Assembly: GCF_007954625.1 (NCBI RefSeq)
Contig: NZ_CP042420.1
Span: 1,571,645-1,635,644, forward strand
Direction: 5' to 3'
Length of the DNA: 64,000 nt
From: Leuconostoc lactis
GTDB taxonomy: Bacteria; Bacillota; Bacilli; Lactobacillales; Lactobacillaceae
Shown: positions 1,970 to 8,730 of the stretch, piece after piece
Layout: each line of letters starts with the position of its first letter
Position numbering within the stretch: position 1 is the stretch's first letter
Position numbers and translations under genes: made by a program
The notes under the pieces: model-generated
What the model was told of the DNA's origin: nothing
Database searches by the model: none
Seen by the model: the letters and a program-made list of their open reading frames with translations, nothing else

Positions 1970-2162
1970 GGCTACATTTTGGCTACAATAGACATTAAAC
2001 CGTTGATATACCAGTGATTAACACTCCCCCCCAGCGCATTTTCACCGCTTTACCACAATTGTTGGTAGAGCGGTTTTTTGTTGCATAAACCCTTGATACG
2101 TAAGGTTTTTTGGTTGTTGTGAGTTCGCGTCGGTTTTTGTTATTTTTGCTACAATTTGCTAC
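1970..2162 (+). repeat. Paired short repeats after the integrase (putative arm-type sites) and terminator
   Basis: GGCTAC occurs twice at 1970-1975 and 1981-1986, and TTGCTAC twice at 2146-2152 and 2156-2162. Such doublets directly after integrase genes are typical of arm-type recombinase sites. A terminator hairpin (CCGCT..TACC / GGTA..AGCGG, then T6) lies at 2051-2082. The att core itself cannot be fixed from this window alone. Confidence 0.4.
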
Positions 2163-2212: not shown

Positions 2213-2280
2213 AAGATGCGATTTTAGAAGCTACCTAAAACGACGGTTAACGTGACTCACTTTTTAATGAATTGATTACA

Positions 2281-2473
2281 AAAAAGCCATGATTTACATC
2301 AAAAGTAAATCATGGCTCGTCTCCCCTAACGTCCCAGCACTTACAATAATAATCTGGAGTATTTTTATAAAAATATATTATGTTAGCTTATAATTAAGAA
2401 TGCAAAGAAGGACGATGGTTATGGTTGTTATGACCATCATTAAATATTATGTATGTGCTGGGATAACGTTACT
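2281..2473 (-). ncRNA. Candidate small RNA, copy 1 of a four-copy family
   Basis: Minus-strand unit. The promoter has -35 TTGACA (plus 2503-2508) and a TAAATT-type -10 about 18 bases on, preceded by the family-conserved TTGATAAAGGT. The RNA would run from about 2473 to a terminator whose stem is CATGATTTAC/GTAAATCATG followed by a U-run at 2280. Long-range pairing: 5' CCCAGCAC (plus 2455-2462) with 3' GTGCTGGG (plus 2333-2340). Conserved CTTCTTTGCA (plus 2401-2410) and ACTCC motifs could bind ribosome sites. This copy lacks the second half of the 5' GTAAC..GTTAC hairpin seen in copies 2-4. There is no plausible reading frame. Not matched to a known family with certainty. Confidence 0.65.
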
Positions 2474-2569
2474 AAAATAATTTAGCATATCAATAACCGA
2501 ATTGTCAAACCTTTATCAAGAATAATCAGTGGTCAATTCAATCGAACTGTTAATGTTTTAAATGAAAAT

Positions 2570-2598
2570 AAAAAAAGCTCACCTTAGTGAGCTTTTTG
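2570..2598 (-). terminator. Terminator of the first cold shock gene
   Basis: AAAGCTCAC-CTTA-GTGAGCTTTTT hairpin directly downstream of the minus-strand csp gene, with A/T runs on both sides. Confidence 0.75.
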
Positions 2599-2603
2599 CC
2601 TTA

Positions 2604-2804
2604 TTAAGCTTTAACGATGTTTGCTGCTTGCAAACCGCGATCGCCACTTTCAACATCGAAAGTCACTGATTGACCTTCATCAAGTGTTTTGAAGCCATCG
2701 CTTTGAATAGCTGAGAAATGGGCGAAGACATCATCACCGTTTTCACGTGTGATAAATCCAAAACCCTTGTCGCCATTAAACCATTTTACTGTGCCTGTTT
2801 CCAT
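2604..2804 (-). CDS. csp: Cold shock protein (CspA family)
   Basis: A 66-residue single CSD protein that binds single-stranded nucleic acid and acts as an RNA chaperone. RNP1 is seen as KGFGFI and RNP2 as DVFAHF. The start [11 protein letters not shown] is preceded by AAAGGAG 8 bases upstream; an upstream in-frame extension is untranslated leader. It is nearly identical to the gene at 15736-15936 (differences near residues 55-57: SGD versus NSD), and the leaders also match, so the two are recent paralogues. A terminator follows at 2570-2598. Confidence 0.95.
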
Positions 2805-2955
2805 TATATGTTTCTCCTTTGGTGTACTCACCAATCTTTTTTGTAATTTAAATAATTGGTACTGAGTGTCCTTCAAGAAAAGAGAAATCAAAATCAAAAA
2901 CTTTATTACTCATTTACTATAACACGTATCACAATGGAATAGCAAGCAAATAAAC
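2805..2955 (-). promoter_or_regulatory. Long csp 5' leader and promoter
   Basis: On the minus strand TTGCTA and TATAGT (18-base spacing) make a promoter, followed by a leader of roughly 120 bases before the csp ATG. Nearly the same leader precedes the second csp gene (15937-16070). Long structured csp leaders are known to act as thermosensors in cspA genes; that role is inferred here. Confidence 0.55.
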
Positions 2956-3079
2956 AAATCAATATATTTTTGTCACTTCATCTTGATTATTTTAGCGCGG
3001 TTTTTGTTGTGTAAACGTTGTTATATTAATGTTTTAAGTTGGCAATTTTTTTAGCGCTTATCCCTAAAAAATGCCAACA

Positions 3080-3285
3080 AAAAAGCCATGATTGTCGTTT
3101 GATGGCAATCATAGCTCGCGTCTCCCAGCATCCCAGCATCCCAGCACCTATAATAATCAGGAGTATTATTTATAAAAAAATATATTATGTCAGTCTACGC
3201 TTAAATATGCAAAGAAGTACGCTGGTTGTTGTGAACAATGCAAATATTATAACGTGCTGGGATGACGTAACTGATACGTTACTAG
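3080..3285 (-). ncRNA. Candidate small RNA, copy 2 of a four-copy family
   Basis: Promoter on the minus strand: TTGACA (plus 3313-3318), then TAAATT about 18 bases on. The RNA starts near 3285 with hairpin GTAAC-GTATCA-GTTAC, then CCCAGCAC (plus 3254-3261), which can pair with GTGCTGGG (plus 3140-3147). It ends in a terminator (ATGATTGCC/GGCAATCAT, then U6) near 3080. The TGCTGGGA segment is tandemly repeated three times here (plus 3123-3147). The stretch opposite plus 3159-3171 is exactly complementary over 13 bases to the ribosome binding site of the Ltp gene at 14864. Confidence 0.7.
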
Positions 3286-3333
3286 AATAATTTATCATAT
3301 GCGTTATTGAATTGTCAAACCTTTATCAAAATA

Positions 3334-3362
3334 AAAAAAGACGTACTTATTCGCGTCTTTTA
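3334..3362 (-). terminator. Rho-independent terminator
   Basis: AAAAAGACG..CGTCTTTTA hairpin in the gap downstream of the coiled-coil protein gene on the minus strand. A second inverted repeat, TCGAGAAA..TTTCTCGA, lies at 3388-3412. Confidence 0.5.
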
Positions 3363-3433
3363 TCCCCGTTGTTAACCCCATATGTATCGAGAAACCATCG
3401 TGATTTCTCGATGCTGTGCGTGCAATCCCGCTA

Positions 3434-4012
3434 TTAGTTCTGGTGCTTGTTCAAAACGTTTTGCGCATACTGATCAAGTTGCTGCACATCTTGGATTGCG
3501 TTATCAAGTTGACCCTGTAACTGATTCCCCTTGGTATTTGCATCACGCAAATCGTTTTGTGCAGTTTGTAGTTGTGCCTGAGTTTGGTTCGCCTTCTGGT
3601 TAGCATCATTCAGCTGAGACTGAATACCATCTAATTCTTTTTGTTTATCCGCCACTCTCTGGTTGCCTTCCGCAATTTTTTGATTAATTTCGTCAATCTT
3701 TTGTTGAATTTCTCTTTGTTTATCATCATTTGCTCTTTGCAAGTCGCCTTGCAACTGCACCACTTGCGTTTTGTAATTTGACACATCGTTCTGAGCAGAC
3801 GTCAGTTGATTCTGGAATTCATTATTTTGGTGTGTCAAACTTGAGATTGCTTGAGATTGCACGGTTAACTTACTATCCAACTGATCAATAATGCCTTTGA
3901 TCTGATTCATCGAGGCGCTTCCTGTCCACCCCGCATAATCTGCCAATATTTTCCCACCCATAAGGGTCATTGCTGTAACTGCCAGGACAATCACTAATTT
4001 GTTGATTTTCAT
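3434..4012 (-). CDS. Secreted or membrane-anchored coiled-coil protein, unknown function
   Basis: 192 residues. Residues 1-25 (MKINKLVIVLAVTAMTLMGG) form a signal peptide or membrane anchor without a lipobox Cys. The rest, about residues 35-185, is a long coiled coil rich in Gln, Asn and Asp with heptad-like spacing (LQGDLQRANDDKQREIQQKI). There is no LPXTG sorting motif. The start is supported by AAGAAGG just upstream. I do not recognise a specific family; it resembles generic lactobacillus surface coiled-coil proteins. It stands alone between small RNA copy 2 and the D-lactate dehydrogenase gene. Confidence 0.7.
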   Translation of the reverse strand: MKINKLVIVLAVTAMTLMGGKILADYAGWTGSASMNQIKGIIDQLDSKLTVQSQAISSLTHQNNEFQNQLTSAQNDVSNYKTQVVQLQGDLQRANDDKQREIQQKIDEINQKIAEGNQRVADKQKELDGIQSQLNDANQKANQTQAQLQTAQNDLRDANTKGNQLQGQLDNAIQDVQQLDQYAQNVLNKHQN

Positions 4013-4388
4013 ATAACCTTCTTTTCTATTTTATGTTATTACATTCACACAGCTTTAATAATGTAGCGTCCTTTCCCTATATAGTCAATTGAATCTTATT
4101 CATTGCCAATAGGCATAAAATGACTTTCACTCACTTAATGTAAGTGTTAACAAATGGTGGTATACCAATATTTGTACGAATAAATTTCCAATTTTTATAA
4201 ATCAAACACAGATGAAATATCACAATAGAAATGTTTTTATATACTATTTTTTCTTGTGATTTTAAGTGTTAAGTATACCAATATTGACAAAATTAAACCC
4301 CACCATTGCAACTAATTTGACTAAGAAATAGTTGGATTATTTTGAGCTTTTATTATTTACCACACTTTTTACTAAAAAATAGACACCA
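4013..4388. other. AT-rich intergenic region with two operator-like direct repeats
   Basis: No gene is seen. TAAGTGTTAA followed by GTATACCAATATT occurs at 4141-4172 (9-base gap) and again at 4263-4285 (no gap). The copies lie about 130 and 250 bases upstream of the coiled-coil gene on the minus strand and could be regulator sites or tandem promoters for it. Confidence 0.4.
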
Positions 4389-4426
4389 AAAAAGCGCAAC
4401 CAGATTATCCAGTTGCGCCTTTTTAG
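4389..4426 (-). terminator. Terminator of dld
   Basis: GCGCAAC-N11-GTTGCGC hairpin with A and T runs, 6 bases past the dld stop on the minus strand. Confidence 0.75.
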
Positions 4427-4431
4427 CATTA

Positions 4432-6111
4432 TTAATATTCGCCCCAATACTTAGACATTGATTGTTGCCCAATGCCGGGATTAAAGCTGTTAGTTGGATC
4501 GTTTTTACGATAGTGATCCACCAATGCAGGTGCTGCGAGATACAAGTGGCCGACATTATGTTCGGCCGGATATACCGCATGGCGGGCATCCAAAATTTTT
4601 AACATGTCCTGTTTGAGTGCATGGGCATCGACCCCAGACTTCAAGATATAATCCTGATGCATCACATGATCGAGCAAGTGACCATAGTAGATTTTATAGG
4701 CAATTTTCTCTTCGATTTCAGCTGGTAACTGTTCAAACCAATGATATTCATTGCTGGCAAAAGCAATATCTAACGGCAAAATGTCGATCGCATCTTGCTT
4801 GAGTTCTTGATAGCGAATCGCCACGCCGGCCGTCACGTAGCGGTGCGTTTCTGCCTTACTGGTTTCATTCGCATCCGCTTCAAAATAATCCCCGTCCTGA
4901 GTTGGGAAGAATGACGCCAAATACTCACGTGCTTCAGCAATCCCATCCCCAGCCATTTTAAGTTGCAAATAGTGGTCATACTTATCATGGTACGCTTCTA
5001 ACCGTTCTGGTAACTGATTAGGGAAAAGATGACTCAAGGTTTGCAATAACCGATCTGGGAAATAAGGCTTGAAGAATGGGATATGCTTCAATAAACGTTC
5101 ACCCCAAGCCTTCATAGCAAACATCTGTGGTAAGTGGCCAGTCCCGATTTTTTCAATCACAATCAGCGAGTCTTTCCCGTATTGCTTCGCGAGTTCATAA
5201 GCCGTTTTATGCATATACTCACCAGACACTGGCAAAGACTTGAAGTGCGTCATAATGTGACGCCGAATATCTTCTAGTTCATCTGGGTTATTGGTCCCAA
5301 TGTAAAAGACCTGAGTGGTCTCATCTTTGGGAAAGGTATCTAGGCGCACCGCTAATGCGGCAACGTGACCGGCAGACCCAGAAACTTCAAATAATTCTTT
5401 TGGATTAGCATTGTAACGAATCGGTTGATCAGAATCGACATCACGAACGACCTGTTCATGATTGTGCATGGAGCCGTGGTGTTCAGTCGCTGGCACTTGG
5501 TTTAAATCGAAGTTACGATTTTCCAAATTGGTAATAATTTCTTCAGGTGTATCACCCAAATCAATACCAAGATGGTTCACTAAGTGCATCTCATCGTTTT
5601 CATCAATCCAGACATAAAGTGACAATTCAGTATAGGCTGGGCCACGACGAATCAGGGCACCACCAGAATTGTTGTTAATGCCGCCAATGACTGAGGCACC
5701 GAGATTTGATGAGCCGATAACCGAATGCGGTTCACGATCTAACGGCCGCAAGGCATTCTCTAACTGGAAAAGCGTTGTGCCTGGAAAGGCCAAAACTTGT
5801 TCCCCATGATTAATCAGTTCCAAATCCTTAATTTTCATGCCGTTGACAACCACAGCTGGGCGATCATAACCAGGTGCTGGTACCGATCCTTCGGTCAAAC
5901 TCGTATTGGCTGCTTGCATAATAATCACAATGTTATGCTCATGCAAAACATTCAATACACGCCACATGGCCATGAGACTGGTTGGGAAAACCACTGCTAT
6001 GGCATCACCATGTCCTGAACGATAGCCTTTGCGAAAACGTAACGTCTTCCCGGCATTCGTGATGACATTTTTCTTGCCAACAACCTCAACCAATTCATCA
6101 ACTAAACTCAT
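4432..6111 (-). CDS. dld: Quinone-dependent D-lactate dehydrogenase
   Basis: 559 residues, close to the 571 of E. coli Dld. This FAD enzyme of the inner membrane face oxidises D-lactate to pyruvate and passes electrons to quinone. An FAD-binding type 4 (PCMH) domain covers roughly residues 20-240, with GSSNLGASVIGGINNNSGG as the flavin-binding Gly-rich stretch; the lactate dehydrogenase membrane-binding domain follows. The start MSLVDELVEV is chosen because GGAGGATT lies just upstream; 19 residues of in-frame extension have no ribosome site. Single-gene unit with its own terminator. Consistent with D-lactate production and optional respiration in Leuconostocaceae. Confidence 0.95.
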   Translation of the reverse strand: MSLVDELVEVVGKKNVITNAGKTLRFRKGYRSGHGDAIAVVFPTSLMAMWRVLNVLHEHNIVIIMQAANTSLTEGSVPAPGYDRPAVVVNGMKIKDLELINHGEQVLAFPGTTLFQLENALRPLDREPHSVIGSSNLGASVIGGINNNSGGALIRRGPAYTELSLYVWIDENDEMHLVNHLGIDLGDTPEEIITNLENRNFDLNQVPATEHHGSMHNHEQVVRDVDSDQPIRYNANPKELFEVSGSAGHVAALAVRLDTFPKDETTQVFYIGTNNPDELEDIRRHIMTHFKSLPVSGEYMHKTAYELAKQYGKDSLIVIEKIGTGHLPQMFAMKAWGERLLKHIPFFKPYFPDRLLQTLSHLFPNQLPERLEAYHDKYDHYLQLKMAGDGIAEAREYLASFFPTQDGDYFEADANETSKAETHRYVTAGVAIRYQELKQDAIDILPLDIAFASNEYHWFEQLPAEIEEKIAYKIYYGHLLDHVMHQDYILKSGVDAHALKQDMLKILDARHAVYPAEHNVGHLYLAAPALVDHYRKNDPTNSFNPGIGQQSMSKYWGEY

Positions 6112-6407
6112 ACTTCTTGCAATCCTCCGAAATTCTGTAATATATAGACTAACATTCCCTTTCATCATACGCCCTTTTTAGTCAAATGGGCACATAAATG
6201 TCTATTTTTCAGGAAAATATTACCAATATGTTTTTGAAATTCCGAACAATTGTACTTATCAGGCTTTTTCATCTCAATTGCAATATAATTTGATGCATTA
6301 TTGGCCGATCAGAATCACCAACTCGCTCACTTTCCTACTGCGTTATCAGGTATAATGACTTAACCTGCTCACACCACTAATGGTCAATATAAGATATGGA
6401 AATTACA

Positions 6408-7028
6408 ATGATGAAAACAAAAGTTGTTATTGCTGGTGGCACAGGATTTGTCGGTCAAGGCATCATCCAACAACTTGATCCAACACAATATGACGTCCAT
6501 AGTTTGTCCCGCCATGTACACCAGTCCACTGCTGACGACAAAACAACTTATCACGTCATTGACTTGTCCGATACACCAAGCTTGTCAGTAATCATTCAAG
6601 ATGCTGATTGGGTGATTGATGCGGTCGGCATCTTGTTGCCCAACCCAATCAAAAAACAAAATTATCAAAACAGCAGTTATGCGCCAGCCAAATATCTCAT
6701 TGATGCATTGCTTACCGCACCAAACACGAAATTACTTTTTATCTCTGCAAATGGTGGGCCATTTTTCATGTCACCCTACCTCAATACAAAAAAAGCCGTC
6801 GAGGCACGGATGCGCACACTGTTACCCGAACGCACTTATATTGTTTATCCAGGGATTATTTTTGACAAAACGCGCTTGAGTTCATATTTCCCCGGACGCA
6901 TTTTGTCACGCTTAGGCGGCATTCAGTATTTTAAAAAATTACGACCAATCAGTCGACAAGCCTTTGCCATTGAGATTGCACAGATACTATCTGGCACAAG
7001 TAGTGCATTAGAAAAAAGACTAGATTGA
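6408..7028 (+). CDS. NAD(P)-binding Rossmann-fold protein (SDR/epimerase-like)
   Basis: About 207 residues with an N-terminal dinucleotide-binding motif GGTGFVGQG at residues 10-18, as in atypical short-chain dehydrogenases and NAD(P)H-binding (NmrA/YwnB-like) proteins. No YxxxK catalytic pair is obvious, so the substrate is unknown. The start is uncertain: ATG at 6396, 6408 and 6411 are in frame and the only ribosome site is a weak GGA; 6408 is chosen on spacing. A -10 like TATAAT lies at 6351. The gene ends inside its own terminator hairpin. Confidence 0.75.
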   Translation: MMKTKVVIAGGTGFVGQGIIQQLDPTQYDVHSLSRHVHQSTADDKTTYHVIDLSDTPSLSVIIQDADWVIDAVGILLPNPIKKQNYQNSSYAPAKYLIDALLTAPNTKLLFISANGGPFFMSPYLNTKKAVEARMRTLLPERTYIVYPGIIFDKTRLSSYFPGRILSRLGGIQYFKKLRPISRQAFAIEIAQILSGTSSALEKRLD

Positions 7029-7041
7029 ATCTAGTCTTTTT
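7013..7041 (+). terminator. Terminator overlapping the end of the SDR-like gene
   Basis: AAAAGACTAGATT-GAATCTAGTCTTTTT hairpin. The TGA stop codon at 7026-7028 lies inside the stem-loop. Confidence 0.75.
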
Positions 7042-7061
7042 AGTTTGAAATAGTGATTAAC

Positions 7062-7270
7062 AAAAAAGTCATGACCTACATGCGCTGTAAATCATGACTT
7101 GCCTTCTCTCCCTATCCCAACACTTACATTAATTTGGAGTATGCATTTTACAAAAAACATTATGTTAGTCTACGCTTAAATATTGCAAAGAAGTACGCTG
7201 GTTGTTTTCAACAATGATCAATAATAAATATTATGTATGTGTTGGGATACCGTAACTGATAAGTTACTAG
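7062..7270 (-). ncRNA. Candidate small RNA, copy 3 of a four-copy family
   Basis: Promoter TTGACA (plus 7299-7304) and TAAATT on the minus strand. The 5' hairpin is GTAAC-TTATCA-GTTAC. The long-range stem has changed to CCCAACAC (plus 7239-7246) with GTGTTGGG (plus 7116-7123), a compensatory double change relative to copies 1 and 2. It ends in terminator AAGTCATGA../..TCATGACTT plus U6. The CAGCGTACTTCTTTGCA segment in the middle is shared with copy 2. Confidence 0.7.
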
Positions 7271-7491
7271 AATAATTTATCATATCAACCCACAAATTGT
7301 CAAACCTTTATCAAAATTATAAAAAGATACCCTTATGTCAAGCTGGGTAAAGCTTTTCCCTGCAATTCAGCCGGATAAATGTTATGCTTTAATGACAACA
7401 TATCGGTTAAATGATCACGTGATTTCTCTCGACGTGTTTGTTGACGTCAACACAGCATGTTAACGCATGTGTCATCATTGAAAGGATGATT

Positions 7492-7617
7492 ATGAACTAC
7501 TTTTTCAAATACGGTGTCCACCAAGTCCAATGGCTATTTATGCTGATTTACGGGGTGGCAGCTGTTGTTGTTATTCTCGGGCTGCTGTATTTTTTATGGT
7601 TAAAGTTCTATAAATAA
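7492..7617 (+). CDS. Small membrane protein, 41 aa
   Basis: ATG preceded by GAAAGGATGATT. The product has one predicted membrane helix (LIYGVAAVVVILGLLYFLWL) near the C-terminus and an aromatic N-terminus (MNYFFKYGVHQ). Its length and composition resemble single-span small membrane proteins of Gram-positives, including toxin-like ones, but no family is recognised. The 170 bases upstream (7322-7491) contain short inverted repeats (AAGCTGGGTAAAGCTT) and no other gene. Confidence 0.6.
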   Translation: MNYFFKYGVHQVQWLFMLIYGVAAVVVILGLLYFLWLKFYK

Positions 7618-7667
7618 TACTAGTTTAATTCAAACCTATCGCGCTGCTAACTTCTGTTCCTTTAGCA

Positions 7668-7707
7668 ATGTTAAGCGTTTGACTAAAACGCTTAACATGA
7701 TTATACT
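7668..7707 (+). promoter_or_regulatory. Promoter overlapped by a perfect 13-bp inverted repeat
   Basis: ATGTTAAGCGTTT (7668-7680) and AAACGCTTAACAT (7686-7698) are exact reverse complements around GACTA. TTGACT (7679-7684) and TATACT (7702-7707) with 17-base spacing form a promoter inside and just after the repeat. A repressor operator covering the -35 is the simplest reading. Confidence 0.6.
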
Positions 7708-7732
7708 TTTAAATAAGTACTTAGGGGGAATT

Positions 7733-7954
7733 ATGTTAGAATTTACACTTGGTTTTATTAGCCTTGTCATTATCGTCAGTGCCATTGGGTCATTTATCAC
7801 CCTTCGGCCAATCTTTCATACGCTAACGCGTAAACAACAGACCTGGTTAACGATACTATTTGTAGCCATCGTGGTATCATTTTTATTCAATGAAATTCCG
7901 GATTTTATCCATGGCTTTAAAATCGGTGTCGAAACCGGTCATTCAGCCTTGTAG
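7733..7954 (+). CDS. Small two-span membrane protein, unknown function
   Basis: 73 residues; start chosen at MLEFTLGF because TAGGGGGAATT precedes it. Two hydrophobic helices, about residues 2-22 and 37-55, are separated by RPIFHTLTRKQQT. No family recognised. It is driven by the TTGACT/TATACT promoter at 7679-7707 with its overlapping palindrome and ends at a strong terminator (7961-7992), so it is a self-contained regulated unit. Confidence 0.7.
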   Translation: MLEFTLGFISLVIIVSAIGSFITLRPIFHTLTRKQQTWLTILFVAIVVSFLFNEIPDFIHGFKIGVETGHSAL

Positions 7955-7960
7955 GCTACA

Positions 7961-7992
7961 AGCATCATCAATTCAGATGATGCTTTTTTTAT
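7961..7992 (+). terminator. Rho-independent terminator
   Basis: GCATCATC-AATTCA-GATGATGC followed by seven T residues. Confidence 0.85.
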
Positions 7993-8049
7993 CGCAAAAT
8001 AAAAAGCGCTGAAATTTGCGCTATCATTTCAATACTGGTACACCCGTTC

Positions 8050-8325
8050 TCAACGTAAATTACCAAGCCACATCGACCACATCACCGCGTTGTCTCGAGC
8101 AAAATCAGGCTTTTGAAGTTCGGTGAAAAATGCCAGCCCTTGTTCTGACAGTTTTTTCTGTAATGCCAGTCCCCTAAAACCACTTTGTAACGATCCTAAC
8201 ACACGCGCTTCACTTTCATGAGTTGTTTTGAGCTGATTAATTGCACGGTCTACAACTACTTGTTCCGCTATATTAAGTGATAATTGTTCCAATACTGTTA
8301 GTAGATCATTCCTATTTTTTGCCAT
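8050..8325 (-). CDS. Small helical protein, possibly bacteriocin-immunity-like
   Basis: 91 residues, start at MAKNRNDLL after AGGGGGAG with 6-base spacing. Entirely helical and soluble by composition. The pattern (four amphipathic helices, GLALQKKLSEQGLAFFTELQ) is loosely like pediocin-type immunity proteins (EntA_Immun), but there is no adjacent bacteriocin precursor, so this is only a weak suggestion. It is bounded on the right by small RNA copy 4. Confidence 0.6.
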   Translation of the reverse strand: MAKNRNDLLTVLEQLSLNIAEQVVVDRAINQLKTTHESEARVLGSLQSGFRGLALQKKLSEQGLAFFTELQKPDFARDNAVMWSMWLGNLR

Positions 8326-8437
8326 TGTCATCTCCCCCTTCGCTCAAGTATACCACAGGCACAACGTCAACACGTAATATATGGCATTATGATGTGGGTT
8401 TCTAACTTACGCGCTTAAAATATCTCATAATTTTTAT

Positions 8438-8645
8438 AAAAAAAGCGCCGCAACTAGTATCATACTAATCACGGCGCTTTTTAATATGGAAAATAAAACC
8501 CAGCACACTATCCGAATTGAGTAGACTAAAAGTATAGCGTTTGTTCTCGGGAAAATATTGCTAATTTTATGTTAAAGTGTGTGTTATGTGTTTCAACAGA
8601 CGTGGACGTCATGTACTGGGCTAACGTAACCAATACGTTACAAGA
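8438..8645 (-). ncRNA. Candidate small RNA, copy 4 of a four-copy family (divergent)
   Basis: Promoter TTGACA (plus 8672-8677) with TAAATT on the minus strand and the conserved TTGATAAAGGT just upstream. 5' hairpin GTAAC-GTATTG-GTTAC; long-range stem CCCAGTAC (plus 8613-8620) with GTGCTGGG (plus 8499-8506), including a G-U pair; terminator AAGCGCCG..CGGCGCTT with a U-run near 8438. The middle part is not conserved with copies 1-3. Confidence 0.6.
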
Positions 8646-8730
8646 ATAATTTATCACATTTCCACTGAAATTGTCAAACCTTTATCAAAATTTTATATCA
8701 AATTGATATCAGTTTATCGTATGCCGACTT

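What the first reader, a model, noticed from the sequence alone, without database searches (positions are those of the whole stretch)
2281..8645. Four dispersed copies of a ~200-nt small RNA gene on the minus strand
Seen: at 2281-2473, 3080-3285, 7062-7270 and 8438-8645. Each unit has TTGATAAAGG-TTTGACA with a TAAATT -10, a 5' GTAAC-N6-GTTAC hairpin (half lost in copy 1), a long-range 8-bp pairing and a terminator hairpin. The pairing strands are CCCAGCAC/GTGCTGGG, CCCAACAC/GTGTTGGG and CCCAGTAC/GTGCTGGG, so base changes keep pairing. Terminator stems differ in sequence but persist. No reading frame is shared. This is a multi-copy sRNA family; which family is not known to me.
Basis: partly seen in the sequence, partly recalled or inferred. 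Interest (0 to 1): 0.85.

Follow-up and report, generated by a model that had tools for sequence, protein, structure and literature searches.

The report
Multi-copy small RNA family in Leuconostoc
A food-fermenting Leuconostoc bacterium carries eight scattered genes for structurally alike small RNAs, absent from the RNA library searched, that look like regulators switched on together but each holding its own well-preserved central stretch.

Summary
Four minus-strand units share a 17-bp promoter box with a perfect -35 and an extended -10, a 5' hairpin (half lost in one), a long-range closing stem and a terminator. The genome has eight such units; Leuconostoc lactis JCM 6123 has seven. In seven paralogues 95.6% of cells pair and 17 of 30 pairs change on both sides, reached by 0 of 500 shuffles. 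Six RNA bodies compared between the two genomes are 91-100% identical; 10 of 14 flanking non-coding segments are 70-85%. No Rfam family matched. No credible copy turned up in 17 other Leuconostoc genomes or in other genera of the family.

Best reading: a new, lineage-restricted family of trans-acting regulatory RNAs, co-controlled through the shared box, each showing its own single-stranded loop on a common scaffold. It works like the multicopy families LhrC and csRNA, but homology to them is not shown. Regulator, targets and transcription itself remain untested; target tests here were weak or negative. Four of nine distinct loci lie beside tRNA or guaA integration sites.

The parts
2277..2475 (-). 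sRNA copy c1 (5' hairpin half lost; closing stem CCCAGCAC/GTGCTGGG; terminator at the 2284-2318 end)
   Evidence: R2 151.5 bits; terminator scan; alignment
2479..2519 (-). c1 promoter: box TTGATAAAGGTTTGACA 2503-2519 (-35 TTGACA 2503-2508), -10 TAAATT 2479-2484
3076..3285 (-). sRNA copy c2 (8-nt unit ATGCTGGG repeated next to the closing stem)
   Evidence: R2 182.3 bits
3289..3329 (-). c2 promoter: box 3313-3329, -10 TAAATT 3289-3294
7059..7270 (-). sRNA copy c3 (closing stem CCCAACAC/GTGTTGGG)
   Evidence: R2 186.5 bits; terminator 7066-7100
7274..7314 (-). c3 promoter: box 7298-7314, -10 TAAATT 7274-7279
8438..8644 (-). sRNA copy c4 (closing stem CCCAGTAC/GTGCTGGG with a wobble; RNA body identical over 163 nt in L. 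lactis JCM 6123)
   Evidence: R2 139 bits; identity
8648..8688 (-). c4 promoter: box 8672-8688, -10 TAAATT 8648-8653
2607..2801 (-). cold-shock (CSD) gene between c2 and c1; neighbour, not part of the RNA
   Evidence: PF00313

Best explanation
The units are genes of a family of independently transcribed, non-coding regulatory RNAs of about 155-220 nt. Shown: each has a sigma-A type promoter (in four copies scanned), a terminator, and a conserved scaffold: a hairpin at the very 5' end, an 8-16 bp closing stem with the core CCCARYAY/RYRYTGGG, and a terminator hairpin, enclosing a 58-123 nt, A/U-rich, G-poor loop. Shown: the loop differs between most paralogues but is nearly unchanged between orthologues, so it is under selection for its sequence. 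Inferred: seven of the eight promoters are co-controlled by one regulator that binds the invariant TTGATAAAGGTTTGACA (TTTGAYA-N4-TTTGAYA, an 11-bp-period direct repeat of the sort that OmpR/PhoB-type response regulators bind, recalled), with the eighth under other control. Inferred: the 5' hairpin and terminator protect the RNA, the closing stem displays the loop, and pyrimidine stretches of the loop pair with the ribosome-binding regions of target mRNAs, mostly to block translation, each member having partly its own targets.
For: Seven exact boxes in the genome, all at sRNA units; spacers between -35 and -10 vary while the box does not. Covariation 95.6% paired, 17 of 30 pairs changed on both sides, 0 of 500 shuffles, slid controls 32-40% paired; 21 distinct rows: 95.1%, 18 of 30. 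R2, trained on seven copies, finds the untrained copy 8 of this genome and the untrained 7 of G008. Six RNA bodies 90.9-100% identical between genomes, against 70.5-84.6% in 10 of 14 flanking non-coding segments. No SD-supported ORF in loops. Over nine loops, summed complementarity to the anti-SD partner P = 0.022 and summed longest pyrimidine run P = 0.006 against 500 dinucleotide shuffles.
Against: No expression data. The SD and pyrimidine signals are weak: only 1 of 9 loops (c1, 0.042) is below 0.05 for SD pairing, none for the pyrimidine run, and c1-c3 and own_5 are related, so the sums are not independent. The neighbouring csp mRNA is no better a target than for shuffled loops in 8 of 9 loops (c3 P = 0.04). 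A wider target scan did not finish. No regulator identified: of 22 TTTGAYA-N4-TTTGAYA places (up to 1 mismatch) 7 are the sRNAs, and none of 13 of the other 15 that I read pointed to a clear regulon. Four of 14 flanking segments are as conserved as the RNAs (90-99%). Copy 8 and two of seven G008 copies lack the box.
Confidence: 0.6

Rival explanations
1. Transposable or otherwise parasitic repeats (MITE-like) whose promoter and hairpins are incidental.
For: Copies are dispersed, lineage-restricted, and polymorphic (c1 absent at the same place in JCM 6123; own_6 absent beside guaA in other species); 4 of 9 distinct loci lie next to tRNA or guaA integration sites.
Against: Pairing is kept through two-sided changes in all three helices; loops diverge between paralogues but stay 91-100% identical between orthologues; no terminal inverted repeats longer than the RNA's own hairpins were reported around the units. 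For c1 the mapped prophage att repeat (2023-2078) puts the unit outside the prophage.
Confidence: 0.1
2. 6S-like decoys that bind RNA polymerase, replacing a canonical 6S RNA.
For: Similar size, long closing stem and large internal loop; RF00013 finds no 6S in this genome although it finds it in 5 of 14 control genomes; a LAB survey marks Leuconostocaceae 6S as structurally non-canonical (PMC8414754, passages seen).
Against: No Rfam 6S match to any copy; eight copies with divergent loops, a separate 5' hairpin and terminator; PMC8414754 describes one syntenic locus near rarA. None of the ten neighbouring genes tested is named as rarA or uspA by Pfam, though not every neighbour was tested.
Confidence: 0.07
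3. Sponge or sequestering RNAs: the conserved closing-stem core and hairpin bind a protein (or another RNA), and the loops are spacers.
For: Parts of the closing stem are invariant in sequence as well as pairing (columns 26, 28, 29, 32 in A3); several copies would add dosage.
Against: Spacer loops would not be expected to stay 91-100% identical between species while flanks change.
Confidence: 0.15
4. Messengers for very small peptides, for example type I toxins.
For: c1 contains a short hydrophobic frame by eye.
Against: That frame has no SD and is not shared; the only SD-scored frames lie in terminators; paralogue alignments carry frame-breaking indels.
Confidence: 0.04

Closest known systems
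LhrC1-5 of Listeria monocytogenes (PMC4132741: abstract and passages seen)
   Same: Several dispersed paralogous sRNAs whose promoters share a response-regulator-responsive element (LisR); CU-rich unpaired sites that bind target mRNA.
   Different: No sequence or Rfam match; here the loops differ among paralogues, the scaffold has a long closing stem, and no regulator or target is known.
csRNAs (CiaR-controlled sRNAs) of streptococci (recalled; only search listing seen)
   Same: Multi-copy sRNAs with an 11-bp-period direct repeat at the promoter (recalled).
   Different: Box and RNA structure differ (recalled comparison); no Rfam match.
6S RNA, RF00013
   Same: Size class, long closing stem around a large loop.
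   Different: No model match; multi-copy; extra 5' hairpin; divergent loops.
lacto-usp RNA and other Rfam Lactobacillales RNAs
   Same: Same order of bacteria.
   Different: No match in any Rfam search here.

Membership tests
Independently transcribed bacterial sRNA gene (general kind) | Own promoter and terminator around a non-coding unit | tested here: met
   Promoters at 4 of 4 window copies, terminator-like sites at c1 and c3 by the scan, terminator helix paired in 97.1% of cells across seven copies; no SD-supported ORF in loops
Independently transcribed bacterial sRNA gene (general kind) | Stable transcript observed | not testable with these tools
   no expression data
Independently transcribed bacterial sRNA gene (general kind) | Conserved secondary structure with compensatory change | tested here: met
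   (structure derived from the same alignment; A5 fitted to the model)
LhrC / csRNA | Match to the Rfam models of known sRNA families | tested here: not met
   no such family among 16 relaxed matches or 8; that models for both are in the library was not checked
LhrC / csRNA | Paralogues share the same unpaired target-binding sites | tested here: inconclusive
   c1-c3 and own_5 share one stretch, the others do not; pyrimidine-run signal weak
LhrC / csRNA | Control by a known response regulator | tested here: inconclusive
   shared 11-bp-period repeat box; regulator unknown; pstS promoters carry TTTACA-type repeats instead (by eye)
6S RNA | RF00013 model match | tested here: not met
6S RNA | RNA polymerase binding and product RNA | not testable with these tools
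   needs biochemistry
Transposable repeat | Mobility signatures instead of structural constraint | tested here: not met
   covariation and orthologous conservation; no longer flanking inverted repeats reported

The most novel reading that the evidence does not exclude
A modular regulatory RNA system private to the Leuconostoc lactis lineage: one promoter box and one RNA scaffold reused at eight loci, each carrying a different conserved single-stranded payload, so that one signal fires several distinct antisense regulators at once; the modules spread by way of tRNA and guaA integration sites.
Probability: 0.35. Interest if true: 0.68.

Novelty: new variant of a known kind. Interest (0 to 1): 0.52.

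Why it matters
Multicopy sRNA families in Gram-positive bacteria are mostly known from pathogens (recalled); three searches for sRNA work that names Leuconostoc listed no report of this family. If the loops are separate payloads on one scaffold under one switch, the family would show how new sRNA regulators arise and diversify in a short time, with two close genomes giving orthologous pairs for every step. A covariance model and an exact box make it directly testable.

Tried and rejected
PhoP control: weak R1 matches in three other Leuconostoc genomes (G013, G016, G017) proved to be the promoter of an ABC-transporter binding-protein gene with TTTGACA-like repeats and a similar 5' hairpin; but in this genome the same gene and two pstS-like genes show TTTACA-type repeats by eye, so the idea was not supported.

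LacI-type operator: TTGATAAACGTTTGACA (one mismatch) occurs in five relatives. In four of the five the downstream frame looks like a PTS permease by eye, one of them tested by Pfam, and in one like an alcohol dehydrogenase. This is a different, palindromic box.

CtsR control: compared from memory only; spacing and half-sites differ.

csp as target: 1 of 9 loops at P = 0.04, the others 0.21 or more, 100 shuffles. A wider scan of translation starts timed out without output and was not repeated at that scale.

csp linkage: 2 of 6 csp genes of this genome have sRNA units beside them; judged too few to mean much.

Phages and plasmids: no blastn match to c2. In viral contigs the exact box occurs in 14 stretches; R2 finds the RNA in 4 of these 14 (L121, L122, L128, L133), which by their csp and integrase neighbours are host flanks of L. 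lactis-like prophages; the other ten have the box only.

Weak R2 matches in 11 other Leuconostoc genomes (22 places, 26-34 bits, E 0.011-0.29): I read 8 of 22; all 8 were terminator hairpins without the closing stem; the other 14 were not read. Sensitivity limit: searches used stricter filters; one search lists only 7 of the 8 copies of this genome, and G008 is not among its genomes with a match, so it was apparently not drawn.

Mis-steps: one search failed (assembly of two pieces); one search's csp look-up failed and its first part is meaningless (repeated); the 'body' slice of own_8 is wrong; one of 19 guaA loci (L168) was mis-anchored and is dropped; alignment A4 misaligned own_7 and was not used.
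Full report
What was checked. The four units were read on the minus strand and aligned. Each has TTGATAAAGGTTTGACA with a perfect -35 inside it, an 18-nt spacer with TG, and TAAATT. Downstream come a GTAAC/GTTAC hairpin (half lost in c1), CCCARYAC, a loop of about 106-115 nt, the complementary strand, and a terminator hairpin with a T run. The whole 17-bp box occurs seven times exactly in the genome, four times in the window and at C1:1075634, 1110938 and 1338376, where the same anatomy follows.

More copies. Model R1 (promoter, hairpin and first stem strand, sequence only) and model R2 (RNA only, 30 pairs) each find eight units in this genome and seven in G008 among 19 Leuconostoc genomes. 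G008 is Leuconostoc lactis KCTC 3528 = JCM 6123 by identical contig coordinates. The eighth unit (C1:39176-39345, 42.9 bits) and two of G008's were not in R2's training set; they lack the TTGATAAAGG box but keep -35, TGnTAAATT, 5' hairpin, CCCARYAY stem (14-16 bp, by eye) and terminator.

Distribution. In the other 17 Leuconostoc genomes R1 gave 7 matches in 6 genomes at E up to 0.01. Three of these are one transporter promoter with a similar hairpin; the other four looked unrelated by eye. R2 gave 22 weak matches; 8 were read and all 8 were terminators only. In 397 family genomes R1 matched only this genus; in 301, R2 matched only this genome. Both used stricter filters. Exact promoter hits among 84,980 named species genomes were all on L. 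lactis JCM 6123 (three stretches); the tool warns that this genome or a very near one may be left out there.

Structure. On the sequence-based alignment of seven paralogues the three helices have 95.6% of cells paired, 17 of 30 pairs with a two-sided change, and covariation score 0.571 against 0.255 in shuffles, with no shuffle of 500 reaching any of the five measures; sliding the partners drops pairing to 32-40%. The structure came from the same alignment, which favours it. With 21 distinct rows, fitted to the model and including a cut-off duplicate row of G008 c3 and allelic copies, the values are 95.1% and 18 of 30. Nine copies fold 3.2 to 9.1 sd below dinucleotide shuffles.

Selection on the loop. 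Between the two genomes, six RNA bodies are 100, 97.0, 90.9, 95.9, 95.9 and 93.7% identical. Of 14 flanking non-coding segments, ten are 70.5-84.6% and four are 90.0-99.1%. Coding segments in the compared stretch range from 79.4% to 96.0%, and guaA and the next ORF at own_6 are 97-98%. The body of c4 is identical over 163 nt while its terminator arm changes and still pairs. Yet own_6, own_7, own_8 and c4 share little loop sequence with the others. Paralogue divergence with orthologue conservation points to member-specific sequence function.

How it may work. The loops are G-poor (7-15% G, 12-23% C) and held open by the closing stem, the usual look of an antisense display (inference). Summed over nine loops, complementarity to the SD region (P = 0.022) and longest pyrimidine run (P = 0.006) exceed shuffles, but single loops mostly do not, and four loops are related. 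The csp message, suggested by linkage, is not a favoured target. So base-pairing is the most likely mechanism on general grounds, not a demonstrated one.

Control. The box reads TTTGAYA-N4-TTTGAYA with an 11-bp period, a form bound by OmpR/PhoB-type regulators (recalled). Its invariance next to variable spacers argues for a bound protein. A search for the repeat with one mismatch gave 22 places; seven are the sRNAs and 13 of the remaining 15 were read without revealing a regulon. The regulator is unknown.

Origin. c1 lies about 200 bp outside a prophage whose att repeat (56 bp, window 2023-2078 = C1:1545494-1545549) is the 3' end of tRNA-Arg(TCT), with a Phage_integrase gene at 900-1967. At the same place JCM 6123 has csp and the tRNA but no c1. 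own_5 lies beside tRNA-Leu and the ninth, JCM 6123-only unit beside tRNA-Arg(CCG). own_6 follows guaA: among 18 readable loci of 19, the box is seen in the 260 nt after guaA only in this genome and JCM 6123, and another species has an integrase gene there. Integration sites may have helped the units spread; this is a correlation in 4 of 9 distinct loci.

Known families. Rfam: nothing over the window at gathering score apart from a tRNA, nothing credible at relaxed thresholds. 6S is not found in this genome by RF00013, and PMC8414754 (passages) flags Leuconostocaceae 6S as non-canonical, so 6S kinship is unlikely but not fully closed. LhrC (PMC4132741, abstract and passages) is the best functional analogue. 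Literature searches listing nothing on this family; a search for the box letters gave 38 papers with at least one of three strings, and the eight listed are unrelated by title.

Verdict. Real, and more extensive than reported: a new lineage-restricted sRNA family. The mechanism is inferred.

Noticed in passing
window 2023-2078 and G000:C1:1545494-1545549: 56-bp direct repeat at the 3' end of tRNA-Arg(TCT): attR/attL of a prophage of about 28 kb whose integrase gene is at 900-1967.
   Followed up: partly
L070-L074 upstream of the 348-aa ABC-transporter binding protein (G017, G013, G016, G014, G001): mRNA leaders of a transporter gene in other Leuconostoc start with a GTAAC..GTTAC-like hairpin; in G013, G016 and G017 three TTTGACA-like repeats at 11-bp period precede it.
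   Followed up: partly
window 3100-3150 (c2): 8-nt unit ATGCTGGG/GTGCTGGG stands three times in this genome and twice in JCM 6123 beside the closing stem, allowing alternative registers.
   Followed up: no
G000:C1 13773, 392888, 835808, 1338123, 1574254, 1587386: Six csp (PF00313) genes here against three in G008 and two in G002.
   Followed up: no
window 2569-2927 (-) and L003 4618-4977 (+): csp leaders score 63.9 and 73 bits for the cspA thermoregulator RF01766, just under its gathering score of 78.
   Followed up: no
L165 281-1435 (G007): Integrase gene directly after guaA, in the place where own_6 sits in this genome.
   Followed up: partly
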